Source: a virus
DNA: 20,343 nucleotides
Strand: one strand, 5' to 3'
Virus record (IMG/VR): IMGVR_UViG_3300029951_001074
Coordinates: 1-20,343 of that record
Part shown: in pieces, positions 7,544-19,814 of the stretch
How the letters are laid out: each line of letters starts with the position of its first letter
How positions within the stretch are numbered: the stretch's first letter is position 1
Translations under genes and position numbers: made by a program
The notes under the pieces: generated by a model
The model's input: the letters and a program-made list of their open reading frames with translations, nothing else
The model's database searches: none
What the model was told of the DNA's origin: nothing

Positions 7544-8197
7544 ATGTTTCGGAAGACCGAGGAAGTGCGGGCGGCCGCGCGGCTGCTGATCCTGGGCTTG
7601 ATGGCGCTTTGCGCGTGCAGCCCACAGAAGACGAACGGAACCGAGCCAACCTCGGCGCCGGCGGCGAAGGCGGCCGATGGGCCGTTCGGTCTCGTGTTCG
7701 GAGAACCGCTCAGCGCGCTGGGGCCCACAAGTCCGGAGAGCACGCCCGACATCTACGATGTGCTGTCGCCGCCGAAACCCGATGCGGATTTCAACCTCAT
7801 CGCCGTCGTCGCGCATGCGACCACCGGCGTCTGCGAGATCTCCGCGGGGCAGCCGCTCATCCTGGGCGACTTGAGCGGCGCCAAGGTGAAGGCGGCGGTC
7901 GATCAGCTGGAGACCGTGGTGTCGTCCAAGTATGGGCCGCCGAAGCAGAAATTTGATGTGTGTCGGGAGTCGGCGTCGTCGTGCTCTCAGGCCTGGAGCG
8001 AGGCCCTCGCCAACCGCAACGCCGTCTACGGCTATGTCTGGTTCCCGGCTGCGCCGACCAAAGGCGGCGTCTGGCGGATCATAGCTGACGTTGCAGCCCA
8101 CAATGCGCTCGAGACGCGAGCGGCCCTGTCCTACGACGGCGTCAACCACGCCGCCTGTGATGCGGCGGCTGCCGCCGCGAAGAACAGTTCGCTGTAG
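7544..8197 (+). CDS. Predicted lipoprotein moron of unknown function
   Basis: A 217-aa exported protein that is not part of the usual tail gene set. The N-terminus has a charged start (MFRKTEEVR), a hydrophobic core (LLILGLMAL) and a lipobox LCAC, so Cys25 would be lipidated and the protein anchored to a membrane facing the periplasm or cell surface. A Pro/Ala/Thr linker (about 28-46) leads to a globular part with VCEI near 97, KYGPPK near 129-134 and Cys140, Cys147 and Cys205, which could form disulfides. The pattern G-x-C-x-I followed by K-Y-G-x-P recalls uncharacterised bacterial exported proteins, a weak impression. The frame is open to a TTG at 7472, but the ATG at 7544 gives a proper signal peptide. 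It lies between chaperone and tape measure genes with a possible own promoter. Superinfection exclusion is one plausible role; nothing proves it. Confidence 0.7.
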   Translation: MFRKTEEVRAAARLLILGLMALCACSPQKTNGTEPTSAPAAKAADGPFGLVFGEPLSALGPTSPESTPDIYDVLSPPKPDADFNLIAVVAHATTGVCEISAGQPLILGDLSGAKVKAAVDQLETVVSSKYGPPKQKFDVCRESASSCSQAWSEALANRNAVYGYVWFPAAPTKGGVWRIIADVAAHNALETRAALSYDGVNHAACDAAAAAAKNSSL

Positions 8198-13145: not shown

Positions 13146-16100
13146 GTGGCCGGCCGCTCAGCTTCCAACGCCGTCACCCGCTATGCCGGCATCCAGGTCC
13201 AGACCTCGTCGCTGGGCCTGCAGATTCCGGTCGGCTGGGGCACGTTCCGCTGCCGCTGCAACCTGGTCGACTATCTCGACTTCAAGTCGGTGGCGCAGAA
13301 GGCTGCGAGCGGGAAGGGCGGCGCCACCGTCACCGGCTATTCGTACAGCGCCACCATCGTCCTGGCGATCTGCGAAGGCCCGATCGACTTCATCACCCAG
13401 GTCTGGGTCGACGCCAAGAACTACGCCTACAATTCGGTCGGCAGCACGGTCGCCAACACCGCCAACGCCTCCGCGGCCTCGCAAGTGGGCCTCACCCTGG
13501 CGCACGGCGCGATCGGCCAGTCGGTCTGGTCCTACCTGACCAGCGCCCATCCCGGCCACGCCATCGGCTATTCCGGCCTCGCCATCGTCTATGCGGAGAA
13601 CTACGCCCTCGACTCGGGCGCCTCGACCCCGGATCACAGCTTCGAGGTGGTCCGCCAGGCCGGTTTCACCGTCAGCGGCTATTCCGGCCCCGACATCGAT
13701 CCGTCGCTGATGATCGCCGACTTCTTCCAGAACACGCGCACCGGTGTGCCGAGCTGGCCGGTCAGCGGTCTCCTGGATCCCGTCACCCTGACCACGGCCG
13801 CCGATTCCTATCAGAAGTACTGCATCGCCTCGGGCCTGCTGCTCTCGCCGGTCATCGACGAGGAGCGTAGCGCTTCCGACGCCCTGACCGAATATCTGCT
13901 GGCGACCAATTCCACCTGCGTCTGGTCCGAGGGCCTGCTGAAGTTCATCCCCTATGGCGACACGACCGTCACCGCCAACGGCGTCACCTACACGCCGGAC
14001 CTGACGCCGGTCTATTCGCTGGGCGACGACGACTATATCGTCAAGGCCGACGGCGATGATCCGATCACGGTCGATATCCAGGACCAGTCGGACGCCTACA
14101 ACGTCGTGCAGCTCGAATATCTCGACCGCACCAACCAGTACAACATGGCCATCGCCCTGGCCTCGGACGCGGCCAATGTGGCGCAGTATGGCGCGCGCCG
14201 GCAGGATCCGACCACCGTCCACTGCGTCTGCACCCCGGCCGTCGCGGCCAGCGCCGCCCAGCTCTACCTGCAGCGCACGCTCTACATTCGCGGCCAGTAC
14301 AAGTTCAAACTCGGCTGGATGTTCGCGCTCCTGGAGCCGGGCGACCTGCTCGAGCTCACCGATTCAGGCCTGGGCCTCGCCGCCTACATGGTCCGGATCA
14401 TCCAGATCGACGAGGACGACAAGGACGCAACCCTCGACGTCACCTGCGAGGACCTGCTGGTGGGCGTCTCCAACACGCCGCTCTACACGATGCAGGCCGG
14501 GCAGGGGACGCAGGTCAACAAGTCCGTCGATCCGGGCGGCGTCGAGGCCAACCTGCTGCTGTGGAGCCAGGATTTCACCCAGAGCGCCTGGACGAAGACC
14601 GATATAAGCGTCACGGCCAGCGCGGCGATCGATCCGATCACCGGCGCGACCGACGCCCAGAAGCTCGTACCTTCGACGGCCGACGCGCCGCATGGCGTCA
14701 GCCAGTCCTTCGCCGGGTTCGAGAACGCCAACTACACCCTGACCTGCTATTTCCAGGCCGACGAGGACTACAACGCCGAGCTTGCGCTGGGTGACGGTGG
14801 GTCGAACGTCGCGACGGTGAGCGTCGATCTTGTATCGGGCGCGGTCTTCGCGACGGCCATCGCCGGAACCGCGATGATCGTCGCTGCGTCGGTGAGCCAG
14901 GTCGGGTCGACGACCTGGTATCGCGCCCAGCTCACGGCGACCATCCCGGCGGCGACGATCAAGGCCACGATCAAGGTGCTCAACGACGCCGGCCTGTCGG
15001 GCTTCTCGGGCGTCGGATTGGAGGGACTCTATGTCTTCGGCGCGCAGGTCAGCCAGGGCGTCGATATCCGCGCCTACGCCGCCACCACGGCCGCGATCTT
15101 GGGCCCGCGGGTCTTCAATCCGCCGAGCCCGGTCACCGAAGGCGGCATGGAGACCTGGTGCGCGCTGGCCGGCGGCCCGAACTGGGGCGGCGCCAACATC
15201 TGGGTGAGCCTCGATGGCGGCGACACCTACGAACTCGTCGCCGAGACCTCGCAAGGCCCCGCCAGATTCGGCTTGCTGACCGCGAGCTATCCCATCGGCG
15301 CCGATCCCGACACCGCCGACACGCTTGCGGTCGACCTCTCGGCGTCCAACGGCGCACTCACCTCCGCCGCCGACGCGGTCGCGGCCGCCAACGGCACGCT
15401 CTGCCTAGTCGACAACGAACTGATCAGCTTCTCCACCGCGACGCTGAAGGGCCCGAACCGCTACAACCTGACCACCTATGTCCGCCGCGGCTGCCTCGGC
15501 ACGACCATCGCCGCCCACGCCGCCGGCGCCGGCTTCGTCCGGCTCGACTCCGCCTGCGTGGCGCTGCCGTTCCTGACCAGCCAGGCGGGCGCCTCGGCCT
15601 ATGTGAAGTTCCAGTCGTTCAACCTCTGGGGCCAGGGCGCGACACCGCTCGCGAACTGCGTCGCCTACCCCTTCACCCCGGCGTCCAATCCCGCCGGCGC
15701 GAGCCCGAACGGCAACACCGCCGGCGGCGGTGAGATCAGCCCGACCACCAACCCGACCTACGTCTCCGCGACCGATCCCTCGCTGGCCGAGGCGATTCCC
15801 AACGGCGCGTTCTGGTTCAATTCGGGCACCGGCGTCTTCTACCAGCGCCATGCGGGGGCCTGGGTCGGCGTCAACCAGATCACCGGCGGCACGGTGTTGT
15901 TTTCCACCACCGGCGCCGGCAACAGTGGCTCGTTCCTGGTCCCCGCCAACGGCCCCAGCTCCGTCACCGTCCTGGTCAAGGGCGGCAGCGGCGGCATGGG
16001 CGACACCGTCGGCGCGGGCTACCTCGGCGGCGGCGGAGGCGAGAATCTCTACACCGCGACCGTGACGCCGGGCTCGACCGTCATCAACTGGACCTGCGGC

Positions 16101-16322
16101 GGATCCGGTACGCCAGGCACGGGCGCTGGCGGCGCGGGCGTCGCCTCGACGGCCACGAGCTCGGCCTGGACCGGAACCATGACCGGCGGCGGCGGCGCGG
16201 GCGGCGGCGTCAGCAGCGTCGGCGCGGGCGGGTCAGCCTCCGGACCCGCCGGCAGCACCAGCACCAGCGGCGCCGCCGGCGTCCCCAACGGCCTCGGCGC
16301 CGTCACCATCACCGCGAACTGA
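13146..16322 (+). CDS. Large tail tip / host-specificity protein with inserted carbohydrate-binding-like module and Gly-rich C-terminus
   Basis: A 1058-aa tail tip protein in the position of gp15 of gene transfer agents, expected to form the central tip and contact the cell surface. Residues 1-465 form the conserved tip core (LGLQIPVGWGTFRC near the N-terminus, YSATIVLAICEGPI, later QLEYLDRTNQYN and MFALLEPGDLLELTD). At about 469-648 (bases 14550-15089) a separate module begins NLLLWSQDF and ends near GAQVSQGVDIRAYA; this pattern is common in phage carbohydrate-binding-like insertions. The core resumes to about 850. From 914 to 1058 the chain is a Gly-rich domain (GGSGGMGD, GGGGGENL, GGGGAGGG), resembling glycine-rich phage adhesin tips. 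The start is GTG with AAGGA 8 bases upstream; no nearby ATG suits better. Confidence 0.85.
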   Translation: MAGRSASNAVTRYAGIQVQTSSLGLQIPVGWGTFRCRCNLVDYLDFKSVAQKAASGKGGATVTGYSYSATIVLAICEGPIDFITQVWVDAKNYAYNSVGSTVANTANASAASQVGLTLAHGAIGQSVWSYLTSAHPGHAIGYSGLAIVYAENYALDSGASTPDHSFEVVRQAGFTVSGYSGPDIDPSLMIADFFQNTRTGVPSWPVSGLLDPVTLTTAADSYQKYCIASGLLLSPVIDEERSASDALTEYLLATNSTCVWSEGLLKFIPYGDTTVTANGVTYTPDLTPVYSLGDDDYIVKADGDDPITVDIQDQSDAYNVVQLEYLDRTNQYNMAIALASDAANVAQYGARRQDPTTVHCVCTPAVAASAAQLYLQRTLYIRGQYKFKLGWMFALLEPGDLLELTDSGLGLAAYMVRIIQIDEDDKDATLDVTCEDLLVGVSNTPLYTMQAGQGTQVNKSVDPGGVEANLLLWSQDFTQSAWTKTDISVTASAAIDPITGATDAQKLVPSTADAPHGVSQSFAGFENANYTLTCYFQADEDYNAELALGDGGSNVATVSVDLVSGAVFATAIAGTAMIVAASVSQVGSTTWYRAQLTATIPAATIKATIKVLNDAGLSGFSGVGLEGLYVFGAQVSQGVDIRAYAATTAAILGPRVFNPPSPVTEGGMETWCALAGGPNWGGANIWVSLDGGDTYELVAETSQGPARFGLLTASYPIGADPDTADTLAVDLSASNGALTSAADAVAAANGTLCLVDNELISFSTATLKGPNRYNLTTYVRRGCLGTTIAAHAAGAGFVRLDSACVALPFLTSQAGASAYVKFQSFNLWGQGATPLANCVAYPFTPASNPAGASPNGNTAGGGEISPTTNPTYVSATDPSLAEAIPNGAFWFNSGTGVFYQRHAGAWVGVNQITGGTVLFSTTGAGNSGSFLVPANGPSSVTVLVKGGSGGMGDTVGAGYLGGGGGENLYTATVTPGSTVINWTCGGSGTPGTGAGGAGVASTATSSAWTGTMTGGGGAGGGVSSVGAGGSASGPAGSTSTSGAAGVPNGLGAVTITAN

Positions 16323-16342
16323 AGCTTTCCGAGGTCAGACCC

Positions 16343-18277
16343 ATGCGCTTTCCGCTCCGCCTGCTGGCGGCGGCTTCGGCCGTCGCGCTCGTCCCCGCCG
16401 CGGCGCTCGCCGCCCCGGTGCCGACCTACACGCCCGCGCCGACGCCCTACACCGGCGGCGAGTTGCTCTTCTGCACCAACTCGGCCGGGACCTCGTCCTA
16501 CCGGTGCGACACGTCGGACGTCGCCAAGGTCGTGCTGGGCGCGACCAACGCCTGGAGCGGGCCGCAGACGTTCGGCGGCGGCGTCTCGCTCGACACCCTG
16601 CCGGCGCATGTCATCATCGTCGGCGAGGACGCCTCGCTCGTCACCGGCGTCGGGCCCGGAACCGCCGGCCAGTTCCTGGTCAGCGGCGGCGCCTCGGGCG
16701 ACCCCAGCTTCACCACCCTGATCAGCGGCGCGCCGTCGACCGGCGACTGCGTCAAATGGGCCTCCGCCACCCAACTCGCCGACGCCGGCGTCCCCTGCGG
16801 CGGCGCCCCCGGCGCCAGCGGCGACCTCGTCTTCAATAACGCCGGCGCGCTGGCGGGGACGACGGATTGGCAACACCTATCGGGCGGGACGCTTTACAGC
16901 ACGCTGACCGGCGGCACGGCGGCGATCTCGCTGAACTCCAACGGCAGCGTAGACGGACAAATCGGCACGGTGGACTCGACCCATTTCGGGCTTTGCTATG
17001 GGGGCCCATCAACGCTCGGGACATGTCCGCTGGAATGGAGCGGCCTGGGTGTCTCGATCACCGGCAATCAGTTCAACATCACGATGACCAATACGACGAA
17101 CTTCTATTCAGGCTCTACGATCGCGCTGCAGTTCTATCCATCCGGTTCGTCTACTGGGACCGATCTGACAGTCGAGGCCGGGACTCTGTTGAATTTTGGC
17201 AGCGGAGCCGTTGGCCTCTGCTACGACACTTATTCCGGGGGCGCGATCATCGATGTCGGGAACGCTTGCGGCAACAAAGCAGGCGCGATGCAACTCGGCA
17301 CCCTGATCGCCAGCGCCGCGATCGATCTCCCTGACGGCGGCCAGGATACGACGAGTTTCCTAAGAGTCGGCGATCACGTCGGTCCCGGCAGCGGAATGGT
17401 GTTTGAAGCACCGGCTAGTGCCGTTATGCCGACGCCCGCGGTTGTCGCCTTCGGCGCCGGTGCGATCGGTCTTCCCGCTGCTGGCGTGCCACTCGGGCCA
17501 ACTGGACAGTATCTCTATCCCGGCCTGACGATCCAAGGCTGGCACACGCCCGGGACTGAGGGCTGTTCGGTCTATTGCCAAGTCGATGACATGACGTTCG
17601 AAGATCACGCGGGAAACGTCATTGCAGGCGTTCAATCACCCGTAAACAGTGCATTCGGCTATCCGTTCCCCTTCCTCATAGGCGCGACGCGCACAGTGAC
17701 GGCCAGCGCCGGCGACGAGGGGATGTATGTCAGCCAACTGCTGATTGGCGATATCATCCCGTCCGGCGCGGTCGAGGGTCCGCGTATCCTATTCCAGCCT
17801 GGGCCAAGCCAGACGTCGCCGGCGACCGGGCCGGCTTTCCTGGGAATTGGCCCGGAGTCACCGAGCAACAACAATTTCCGGTTCGGGCACTCCGGCAACG
17901 AGGTGTCGCCCTGGGATGACGACGGTACCTACCCGACTGACGTCGATGTTGCGGGTTGTTGGGGTACCGGCATTGGTGCGGGTGCGGGCTTCCAAGGCGG
18001 CGCGGGCGTCGTTTGGGAGGGAAAGCTTTGCCCGCTTTCGGGCGGAGGGTTCGAGATTATGAATGCTGCGAAGAGCGGCGATGCGCCGTTGAAGGCAGCA
18101 TTTTACCGAACCGTCGCCACAACCGTATCGGGATTGGCGACGGTTGATGCTTCGCCAAGTGTTGGGGATAGGGCGGTCGTCACCGACGCGACAAGTTGCG
18201 CTTTCAATTCGGCCGTCACCGGAGGCGGCTCCGCGAAATGCCCGGTCGTCTATACTGGCTCCTGGGTCGCGGGCTGA
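16343..18277 (+). CDS. Fibre-like protein with Sec signal peptide and paired cysteines
   Basis: A 644-aa protein next to the tail tip gene, probably a tail fibre or surface adhesin. Residues 1-24 look like a classical Sec signal peptide: MRFPLR, a hydrophobic Ala/Val/Leu core, and an ALA-A cleavage site near 23/24. This is odd for a virion protein assembled in the cytoplasm. The body is low-charge, Gly/Ser/Thr-rich beta sequence. The C-terminus (SVGDRAVVTDAT, then AVTGGGSAKCPVVY and SWVAG) matches an end motif seen in many phage tail proteins. The 14 cysteines fall in neighbouring pairs: 44/55, 136/152, 218/228, 293/309, 408/412, 539/563, 619/633. From about 16860 on, base composition is visibly less GC-rich than in the tail genes, suggesting recent exchange. 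The 3' end overlaps the convergent acyltransferase gene by 28 bases. Confidence 0.7.
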   Translation: MRFPLRLLAAASAVALVPAAALAAPVPTYTPAPTPYTGGELLFCTNSAGTSSYRCDTSDVAKVVLGATNAWSGPQTFGGGVSLDTLPAHVIIVGEDASLVTGVGPGTAGQFLVSGGASGDPSFTTLISGAPSTGDCVKWASATQLADAGVPCGGAPGASGDLVFNNAGALAGTTDWQHLSGGTLYSTLTGGTAAISLNSNGSVDGQIGTVDSTHFGLCYGGPSTLGTCPLEWSGLGVSITGNQFNITMTNTTNFYSGSTIALQFYPSGSSTGTDLTVEAGTLLNFGSGAVGLCYDTYSGGAIIDVGNACGNKAGAMQLGTLIASAAIDLPDGGQDTTSFLRVGDHVGPGSGMVFEAPASAVMPTPAVVAFGAGAIGLPAAGVPLGPTGQYLYPGLTIQGWHTPGTEGCSVYCQVDDMTFEDHAGNVIAGVQSPVNSAFGYPFPFLIGATRTVTASAGDEGMYVSQLLIGDIIPSGAVEGPRILFQPGPSQTSPATGPAFLGIGPESPSNNNFRFGHSGNEVSPWDDDGTYPTDVDVAGCWGTGIGAGAGFQGGAGVVWEGKLCPLSGGGFEIMNAAKSGDAPLKAAFYRTVATTVSGLATVDASPSVGDRAVVTDATSCAFNSAVTGGGSAKCPVVYTGSWVAG

Positions 18278-19344
18278 GGAACCCGCGCGCGCAAAGGCAC
18301 GCTGTCGGACACGAATTTTAGGCCCCTGCGAATTGGCGGCTCGAAAACGGTAGCTACCAAGACGCTCAACACCACCATCAGCGCTGCGGTAGCGAAGGCG
18401 TCTAGATGAATGATTACGCCGAGCCGAACACCGAACCTCGCGTGGAGCAGATAGAGCGGGTACGTGGCTAGGCCGAGCGCCCGGATCGCGCCGCTCAACC
18501 GGGCAAGCGCCGCCCAAATCCGGCGATTTAGGATAACCGACGATCCTGCTGTTACGACGAGCGTGATCCACACAATAACCGGGACCAGCTCTTGCGCCTG
18601 GAACGGCCGAGCGGCCCCCGCTCCAGACGATGCCGCGAAGGCGTTGAACATGATCTGAGCAATGCCCGACGCGAGGCAAACGAGCATCAGCGCCGACCGG
18701 CTGGCGGTCATGCCGTAGCGCATGGTCTCTCTAAATAATGCGCCGAGCGCGAAGTAGCAGCCGAACTGGACAAGGCTCAGTAGGATCGGCGGGACCATCT
18801 CAAAACGAGCAGCGTCGATCGGAGATGCCGCGTCGGCCGCTACGACAAGACGGCCAAGCCACCATAGGCCACTACCGATCGCCAATATACGGATTAGATT
18901 TCTCAGTGAAAGAAGGCTTTGCCGACCCAGTGTGCAAAAAACGAAGACGTAAAAGGTGATCTCAATTGGAAGTGTCCAGTAGACGGCGTCCACGTAAGGG
19001 CCTGTGAGCCAAAGACTGACGGTCCTAATGTACTGATTAAATAGACCCCCGGTATTTCCCGAGAACGCAACAATTGTCGCTGTGGCCGTTCCGCTTATCC
19101 ACGCCGCTGGCATTAGACGGGCGACACGCGCCTTGACGAATGACGAAGCCGTCGCGCCTTCGGCGGAGTAGGCGATGACGAAGCCCGAAATGACGAAGAA
19201 AACTTCCACGCCGACCCACCCGGCCCAGGCGAACGAAAGTCGATTCTGAGGAAAGGCGTGGTCGTAGTGGAACGCCATGACCATTGCTGCAGCCGCGAAC
19301 CGGATTAGGTCGAGGCCGAGGATGTGGCGATCATTCATTGCCAT
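18250..19344 (-). CDS. Acyltransferase family 3 (OafA/YrhL-like) membrane protein
   Basis: Inner-membrane acyltransferase likely to add acetyl or a similar group to surface polysaccharide (O-antigen, capsule or S-layer glycan). The 364-aa product has the family motifs in order: LDLIRFAAAAMVMAFH with Arg15 and the key His26, VGVEVFFVISGF near 44-55, VKARVARLMPAAW, and YWTLPIEITFYVF, followed by about seven further hydrophobic helices. A basic Pro-rich tail ends the chain. I chose the ATG at 19344; an ATG at 19338 and a TTG at 19353 are alternatives, and none has a clear Shine-Dalgarno. It is the only minus-strand gene, is less GC-rich than the tail genes, and overlaps the fibre gene tail to tail. 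Phage-encoded acyltransferases of this kind are known in lysogenic conversion, where altered glycans block related phages. Substrate unknown. Confidence 0.88.
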   Translation of the reverse strand: MAMNDRHILGLDLIRFAAAAMVMAFHYDHAFPQNRLSFAWAGWVGVEVFFVISGFVIAYSAEGATASSFVKARVARLMPAAWISGTATATIVAFSGNTGGLFNQYIRTVSLWLTGPYVDAVYWTLPIEITFYVFVFCTLGRQSLLSLRNLIRILAIGSGLWWLGRLVVAADAASPIDAARFEMVPPILLSLVQFGCYFALGALFRETMRYGMTASRSALMLVCLASGIAQIMFNAFAASSGAGAARPFQAQELVPVIVWITLVVTAGSSVILNRRIWAALARLSGAIRALGLATYPLYLLHARFGVRLGVIIHLDAFATAALMVVLSVLVATVFEPPIRRGLKFVSDSVPLRARVPQPATQEPV

Positions 19345-19514
19345 GACGAACAACTAACGCGGGTGTGGTCGCGCCGCCAAGACCCAACGCCAGGTTACAT
19401 CGCGCGGTGTATGACGCGCGCGTCGCTCCCAACGACCGATACGCCGCCCATTTGCGCGTCCCTCGTCAGTCGTCCGCTCCCTGTTCACCGCCGGATCGTT
19501 GAGGCTCGTACGAA

Positions 19515-19814
19515 ATGGACCCAGCCGCCTGGATCGCGCTTGCGGGCGCGGTTGCTACCGCTGCGATAAACCTCGGCGGCTACCTCATCGCCTGGGGCGT
19601 GATGAAGGGGACCGTCGCCGGTCTGGCGAGTCGGGTCGCCTCGCTCGAGGGGGAGATGCGCGCGCTGGACGAGCTCAAGCTCGACGTGGCGCGGCTCGAG
19701 ACCCGGCTCGACACCCTGATCGAGCAGGTCCGCGACCTGAACGCCTCGATCCGCTGGATGCGCGAGCCCGGCGAGGGCCGTCGGGCGCGCGGCCGCAGCA
19801 CGATCGCCGACTAA
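19515..19814 (+). CDS. Small membrane-anchored coiled-coil protein, possible lysis-region gene
   Basis: A 99-aa protein with one clear hydrophobic segment at about 5-30 (IALAGAVATAAINLGGYLIAW), then a heptad-like coiled coil from about 36 to 83 (ASRVASLEGEMRALDELK, RLETRLDTLIEQV), and a basic Arg-rich end. This layout, one N-terminal transmembrane helix followed by a coiled coil, resembles small phage proteins found near lysis genes (inner-membrane spanins or holin-associated proteins), but no conserved motif confirms one. GAGG at 19501-19504 lies 10 bases before the ATG. The 170 bases upstream, between the divergent acyltransferase start and this gene, hold no convincing gene or promoter. 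Confidence 0.65.
   Translation: MDPAAWIALAGAVATAAINLGGYLIAWGVMKGTVAGLASRVASLEGEMRALDELKLDVARLETRLDTLIEQVRDLNASIRWMREPGEGRRARGRSTIAD

What the first reader, a model, noticed from the sequence alone, without database searches (positions are those of the whole stretch)
16343..18277. A phage fibre-like protein that appears to be secreted and disulfide-bonded
The protein carries a clean Sec signal peptide with ALA-A cleavage site, and 14 cysteines fall into seven neighbouring pairs, both pointing to folding in the periplasm or outside the cell, yet its C-terminal motif and location are those of a tail fibre. Either the virion protein is made with a signal peptide for an unknown reason, or the prophage displays a fibre-like protein on the host surface (receptor masking, decoy, or adhesion). 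I recall similar signal-bearing fibre-like genes in other alphaproteobacterial prophages, but not an explanation.
Basis: partly seen in the sequence, partly recalled or inferred. Interest (0 to 1): 0.75.

Follow-up and report, generated by a model that had tools for sequence, protein, structure and literature searches.

The report
Secreted, disulfide-paired phage tail-fibre-like protein
A phage tail-fibre-like protein carries a secretion signal and paired cysteines, and in its relatives the two features come and go together, so these fibres are probably made outside the cell's cytoplasm, where phage tails are not thought to be built.

Summary
In detail: 644 aa, clean Sec signal peptide (ALA|A), 14 cysteines in seven close pairs (short gaps 4-24, long gaps 56-127), a fibre-type C-terminal cap, 20 bp behind the tail-tip gene J.

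I tested whether the signal is real. The cap occurs on about 100 distinct viral proteins. All 17 readable caps carrying either of two cysteine-pair geometries (11/11 and 6/6) have a signal-like N-terminus; unpaired caps almost never do (non-redundant 12/12 versus 6/52, p=6e-9; five of the six are internal heuristic hits). Eighteen of 20 signal-bearing fibre-like proteins have an even mature cysteine count. The distal module (residues 171-644) is shared at 41-46% with two distant phages whose unrelated N-termini also carry signal peptides. Export and disulfide bonding are therefore very likely, though inferred.

GC3 and homology show that residues 171-644 plus the neighbouring acyltransferase form a swapped cassette: an adhesin tip beside a surface-modifying enzyme. 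Best reading: a receptor-binding fibre subunit that folds and oxidises in the periplasm and joins virions at lysis. Virion incorporation is untested; a free, lysis-released adhesin is the main rival. Lysogen masking is less likely (late-operon position, no membrane anchor). I found no published description of this class.

The parts
13146..16322 (+). J-like tail-tip/hub protein (1058 aa), upstream neighbour in the same operon
   Evidence: Pfam Phage-tail_3 5.5e-33 and Rcc01698_C 7.7e-16; PHROG tail protein 3.2e-88
16331..16334 (+). ribosome-binding-site-like GAGG before the ATG at 16343
   Evidence: sequence
16343..18277 (+). exported fibre-like protein P0001, 644 aa
   Evidence: relatives L135 (41%) and L139 (44%) with signal peptides
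16343..16411 (+). Sec signal peptide, residues 1-23, predicted SPase I site ALA|A
   Evidence: sequence and heuristic; signal peptide also in relatives L135, L139, L005, L007
16343..16852 (+). backbone-type N-terminal module, residues 1-170 (Cys pairs 44/55 and 136/152), GC3 0.94-0.97 like J (0.91)
16853..18274 (+). foreign C-terminal module, residues 171-644 (Cys pairs 218/228, 293/309, 408/412, 539/563, 619/633), GC3 0.66-0.73, 46% and 41% identical to L139 and L135
18101..18274 (+). C-terminal fibre cap (residues 587-644) with the pair C619/C633 (18197-18199, 18239-18241)
   Evidence: cap motif in about 100 proteins; AF2 pLDDT 90; Foldseek matches to phage proteins
18250..19353 (-). convergent acyltransferase-3 (O-antigen-acetylase-like), GC3 0.68; travels with the fibre C-terminal module
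   Evidence: Pfam Acyl_transf_3 1.5e-19, PHROG O-acetyltransferase 2.3e-30; 45% homologue in the same place in L135's record
19515..19814 (+). backbone gene (small protein, hydrophobic N-terminus and coiled coil) bounding the cassette; 94% identical to L139

Best explanation
P0001 is the receptor-binding fibre subunit of a lambda/GTA-type siphophage, made in the late tail operon but exported by Sec. Shown (by sequence): signal peptide, seven sequence-neighbouring Cys pairs, fibre-type cap, operon position, exchangeable tip cassette. Strongly inferred: the signal peptide is cleaved and the protein folds with disulfides in the periplasm. Inferred and untested: it trimerises there and docks on the tail tip (J) when lysis mixes periplasm and cytoplasm, so virions get their disulfide-hardened adhesin only at release. 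Its tip probably recognises a surface glycan that the neighbouring acyltransferase modifies in lysogens to stop superinfection and re-adsorption.
For: All 17 caps with a Cys pair and a readable N-terminus (11 of geometry TDAxxC...GGGxxxCPV; 6 of strict geometry LPxC...C[DN]G) have a signal-like N-terminus, while caps with only the second Cys do not. Non-redundant table 12/12 versus 6/52, Fisher 5.7e-9. Mature Cys number is even in 18/20 signal-bearing proteins; J is odd and unpaired. Pairs 293/309, 408/412 and 619/633 are each both present or both absent in every relative. The same C-terminal module sits on unrelated N-termini that both have signal peptides. Signal-bearing relatives match tail-fibre PHROGs (L008 1.4e-18, L065 2.7e-9, L138 8.6e-5), and L008 matches an annotated E. 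coli phage tail fibre. In L102's phage at least five of the long fibre-like genes in the region have signal peptides and no long cytoplasmic fibre gene was seen there. Gap to J 20 bp, no promoter found between them. Tip plus acyltransferase form one compositionally foreign block in two phages. Acyltransferase or hexapeptide transferase genes lie near signal-bearing genes in five of six J-bearing records checked.
Against: No virion proteomics or isolate relative was found. Docking on the virion after lysis is unproven. L154's phage has a long fibre-position gene without a signal peptide beside signal-bearing ones, and L029 has signal-less fibre-like ORFs too, so exported genes need not be the virion fibre. 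The recognisable docking domain could not be confirmed: Pfam found nothing for P0001's N-terminal domain or for L069's. L135, L139 and L007 have a Cys in the signal peptide that could be a lipobox, which would mean membrane anchoring (sequence).
Confidence: 0.5

Rival explanations
1. An exported late adhesin or enzyme that never joins the virion. It accumulates in the periplasm and is released at lysis, where it occupies or destroys receptors on debris and neighbouring cells so that progeny are not lost.
For: Same export and disulfide evidence. Runs of several signal-bearing genes in one phage (L102, L138) are more than a single fibre needs. J's own glycine-rich C-terminus could be the receptor-binding tip. 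A GDSL-like esterase with a signal peptide lies in L014.
Against: The fibre cap and tail-fibre PHROG matches point to virion fibres. No catalytic domain was found in P0001.
Confidence: 0.27
2. A lysogenic-conversion protein shown on or in the host envelope that masks receptors or excludes superinfection, comparable to lambda Lom, which is also encoded next to J.
For: Position after J, as for lom (own knowledge); adjacent acyltransferase; possible lipoboxes in L135, L139 and L007.
Against: No promoter between J and the gene, so expression should be late; no lipobox, beta-barrel family or autotransporter domain in P0001; the cap is a fibre domain; the neighbouring gene looks like the conversion gene.
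Confidence: 0.13
3. The signal-like N-terminus is not used for export; it is a hydrophobic docking segment, and the cysteines are free thiols or metal ligands in a cytoplasmically folded virion protein.
For: All recognised tailed-phage assembly is cytoplasmic (own knowledge); only heuristic signal prediction was possible.
Against: Perfect association of Cys pairs with signal peptides in two geometries, even Cys counts, cleavage-site conservation, unrelated N-termini that all keep signal features.
Confidence: 0.07

Closest known systems
Tailed-phage tail fibres and tailspikes (receptor-binding proteins)
   Same: Position behind the tail tip, modular exchangeable distal part, C-terminal cap domain shared with about 100 fibre-like proteins
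   Different: Sec signal peptide and paired cysteines; ordinary members fold in the cytoplasm and lack both
Shigella phage Sf6: glycan-binding tailspike plus O-acetyltransferase (Oac)
   Same: A phage that carries both a glycan-recognising adhesin and an acyltransferase-3; O-acetylation by Sf6 gives superinfection immunity because it hinders the tailspike (PMC9558356)
   Different: Sf6 oac maps next to the integrase gene (reference title), and the Sf6 tailspike has no signal peptide to my knowledge
Lambda Lom (outer-membrane protein encoded after J)
   Same: Exported protein encoded next to the tail-tip gene (own knowledge)
   Different: P0001 matches no outer-membrane family and carries a fibre cap
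Phage proteins known to have signal peptides (SAR endolysins, T4 RI antiholin, spanins)
   Same: Use of host Sec by a late phage protein (for example PMC8385771 on T4 RI and PMC3765740 on a SAR endolysin)
   Different: Those are lysis proteins, not fibre-like structural proteins

Membership tests
Tail fibre / receptor-binding protein | Encoded in the tail module behind tail-tip protein J | tested here: met
   20 bp after J, same strand
Tail fibre / receptor-binding protein | Recognisable fibre domain | tested here: met
   C-terminal cap shared with about 100 fibre-like proteins; Foldseek probability 1.00 to phage proteins, but best E 1.3e-3 and no strong PDB match
Tail fibre / receptor-binding protein | Modular exchange of the distal part | tested here: met
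   Breakpoint near residue 171 by homology and GC3
Tail fibre / receptor-binding protein | N-terminal tail-docking domain | tested here: inconclusive
   No Pfam or PHROG match for the N-terminal region
Tail fibre / receptor-binding protein | Present in virions and binds the host | not testable with these tools
   Needs virion proteomics and adsorption tests
Sec/SPase I-exported, disulfide-bonded protein | n-, h- and c-regions with an AXA site | tested here: met
   Sequence and heuristic; SignalP not available
Sec/SPase I-exported, disulfide-bonded protein | Even, paired and co-conserved cysteines | tested here: met
   14 mature Cys, seven pairs; most pairs co-conserved in relatives
Sec/SPase I-exported, disulfide-bonded protein | Cleaved and oxidised in vivo | not testable with these tools
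   Needs N-terminal sequencing and redox mass spectrometry
Superinfection-exclusion or outer-membrane moron (Lom-like) | Own promoter, expressed in the lysogen | tested here: not met
   No promoter between J and the gene; the only consensus match is inside the gene and at chance level
Superinfection-exclusion or outer-membrane moron (Lom-like) | Membrane anchor, lipobox or outer-membrane barrel | tested here: not met
   None in P0001 by inspection and Pfam; possible lipobox only in L135, L139, L007

The most novel reading that the evidence does not exclude
A widespread class of tailed phages makes its host-recognition fibres outside the cytoplasm: Sec-exported, oxidised in the periplasm, and fitted to virions only when lysis mixes the compartments, so that the last step of virion maturation is extracytoplasmic.
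Probability: 0.45. Interest if true: 0.85.

Novelty: new variant of a known kind. Interest (0 to 1): 0.62.

Why it matters
Tailed-phage assembly is treated as cytoplasmic. If a recurrent class of fibres is exported and disulfide-bonded, either virions are finished after lysis, or phages secrete fibre-like proteins for another purpose; both would be new to phage biology. It would also give a sequence rule (signal peptide plus cap Cys pair) for finding extracytoplasmic, probably very stable, receptor-binding proteins, and would mean that heterologous expression of such proteins needs an oxidising compartment.

Tried and rejected
Pfam, PHROGs and PDB sequence searches with the whole protein: nothing significant. 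Isolate phages and plasmids by tblastn: no relatives. AlphaFold on the five-member family gave pLDDT 35 except for the cap, so no whole-protein fold search was made. The cap model gave no distances, so the C619-C633 distance could not be measured. Two DNA patterns were written with wrong spacing and wasted three scans; later patterns were checked on known loci first. T7-type docking domain in L069, recalled by eye: not supported by Pfam, PHROGs or PDB, so not used as evidence. Total Cys content alone: rejected as an argument because signal-less J also has 15 Cys. Closest phage structural hit BcepF1: its annotated tail region was read in the record, gave nothing further, and the matching protein was not analysed. 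L152: a cap with its first Cys displaced by about eight residues has no signal peptide; the loose pair rule would have counted it as paired had it been readable then.

Full report
Setting. The window is the whole of a 20,343-base IMG/VR record without a host genome. It holds the head and tail module of a lambda/GTA-type siphophage: portal, protease-capsid region, tape measure, DUF2460, phiJL001-gp84-type hub protein, NlpC/P60, and a J-like tail-tip protein with Phage-tail_3 and Rcc01698_C domains. P0001 (16343-18277) follows J by 20 bp with a GAGG ribosome site. A convergent acyltransferase-3 gene (18250-19353, minus) overlaps its 3' end.

Observation. The signal peptide, the ALA|A site and the seven Cys pairs are there. 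Gaps within pairs are 11, 16, 10, 16, 4, 24, 14; gaps between pairs are 81, 66, 65, 99, 127, 56. Random placement reaches an equally small sum of within-pair gaps in 0.16% of trials, separates short from long gaps at all in 0.05%, and never gave the observed separation in 300,000 trials. J in the same operon has 15 cysteines without this pattern, so the number alone means little; the pattern does.

Is the export real? Most are cytoplasmic-looking proteins starting with adaptor sequences such as MATINQLSAV and have no cap cysteines. A subset has a Cys on each side of one hairpin (TDAxxC...GGGxxxCPV). A scan for that form gave 11 stretches besides the window. All with a readable N-terminus had a signal peptide, and two first seen truncated (L021, L134), when read upstream, had one too, making 11 of 11; L137 remains unread. 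The L134 signal (MYRWLPLLIVLLCRDVIAG) is the weakest.

A second scan for a different geometry (second Cys in the CDG turn) gave an internal control. Proteins with the partner Cys at LPxC (L049, L069, L145, L150, L154, and L144 once read upstream) all have signal peptides, 6 of 6. Those with the second Cys alone (L036/L146, L099/L149/L153, L148, L151) have none. L152, whose first Cys lies about eight residues away from the LPxC position, also has none. After removing caps above 82% identity, an automatic table gives 12/12 with signal among paired and 6/52 among unpaired caps, Fisher p=5.7e-9. Five of those six are internal start codons picked up by the loose heuristic; L005 is genuine and carries its 12 cysteines elsewhere. 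Relatedness makes the cases less than independent, but two geometries and several unrelated protein bodies (beta-helix-like, GDSL-like, collagen-containing) share the rule. Mature Cys counts are even in 18 of 20 signal-bearing fibre-like proteins. In the P0001 family, pairs 293/309, 408/412 and 619/633 are each either both present or both absent in every relative; 539/563 has one ambiguous case in L005, and 218/228 is shifted in the relatives. Together this makes export with disulfide formation the only economical explanation. It is still inference from sequence: no cleavage or bond was measured, and SignalP was not available.

Anatomy and evolution. P0001 is a mosaic. Residues 1-170 have GC3 of about 0.95 like the phage backbone; residues 171-644 have 0.66-0.73, like the acyltransferase (0.68). 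The break coincides with homology: residues 171-644 are 46% and 41% identical to L139 and L135, residues 1-170 are unrelated to them, and the J proteins of these phages are only about 32% identical, while the next backbone gene (19515) is 94% identical to L139. L135's fibre shows the same GC3 drop near residue 140 and has a 45% identical acyltransferase in the same convergent place. So the distal fibre and the acyltransferase move together onto different backbones, and each backbone supplies its own N-terminus, in every case with a signal peptide. Acyltransferase-3 genes also lie near signal-bearing genes in L014 and L008, and a hexapeptide transferase in L013; L139 has a 609-aa ORF without a Pfam match instead. 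A distal fibre linked to a surface-modifying enzyme is what one expects of a receptor-binding protein and its receptor-altering partner. In phage Sf6, O-acetylation by the phage enzyme blocks the tailspike (PMC9558356).

Mechanism. Most likely P0001 is made late, exported, oxidised and trimerised in the periplasm, and joins the tail when lysis opens the cell. Support for a virion role: operon position, cap, tail-fibre PHROG matches of signal-bearing relatives (L008, L065, L138), and L102's phage, where the long fibre-like genes seen all have signal peptides. That fibres or spikes can attach to finished particles outside the cell is established for P22 and T4 (own knowledge). The competing reading is a free, lysis-released adhesin or receptor blocker; runs of signal-bearing genes (L102, L138) and the coexistence of signal-less fibre-like genes in L154's and L029's phages keep it alive. 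Display in lysogens fits less well because no promoter separates the gene from J and P0001 has no anchor, although three relatives have a Cys in the signal peptide that might be a lipobox.

Novelty. Full-text searches found no description of Sec-exported, disulfide-paired tail fibres as a class; the library holds open-licence papers only, so this is weak evidence of absence. I rate it a new variant of a known kind (tail-fibre-like protein), with a potentially important consequence if virion docking after lysis is shown.

Noticed in passing
window 7544-8197 (+): A predicted exported, probably lipoprotein gene (MFRKTEEVRAAARLLILGLMALCAC|SPQ) inserted between the tail genes before the tape measure; found only in the near-identical record L004, no Pfam match; possible exclusion moron.
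   Followed up: partly
L180:12016-19801 (record of L102): Six consecutive or nearly consecutive genes with signal peptides in the fibre region of one phage, including an 862-aa collagen-containing protein with 24 cysteines.
   Followed up: partly
L181:290-6814 (record of L154): A long fibre-position protein without a signal peptide (290-1633) followed by three signal-bearing proteins; it may be an adaptor onto which exported fibres dock.
   Followed up: no
L135:1053-2843 (-), L139:8056-9888 (+), L007:11509-12375 (+): Each has one Cys inside the signal peptide in a lipobox-like context, with an even number of Cys after it; lipoprotein or SPase I substrate is unresolved.
   Followed up: no
L005:11960-12565 and L006:4708-5307 (+): Second family of about 200-aa signal-bearing proteins directly at the end of J, with an ISALPSA..TDVFP-type adaptor start and six Cys, followed by an unknown conserved protein of about 190 aa.
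   Followed up: partly
window 16852/16853 and 18250-19353: Sharp GC3 break inside the fibre gene, with the adjacent acyltransferase on the foreign side: distal fibre plus surface-modifying enzyme exchanged as one block, repeated in L135.
   Followed up: yes
L014:12679-13932 (+): Signal-bearing GDSL-like esterase in fibre position near an acyltransferase-3 gene: a possible deacetylase and acetylase pair acting on the same surface glycan.
   Followed up: no
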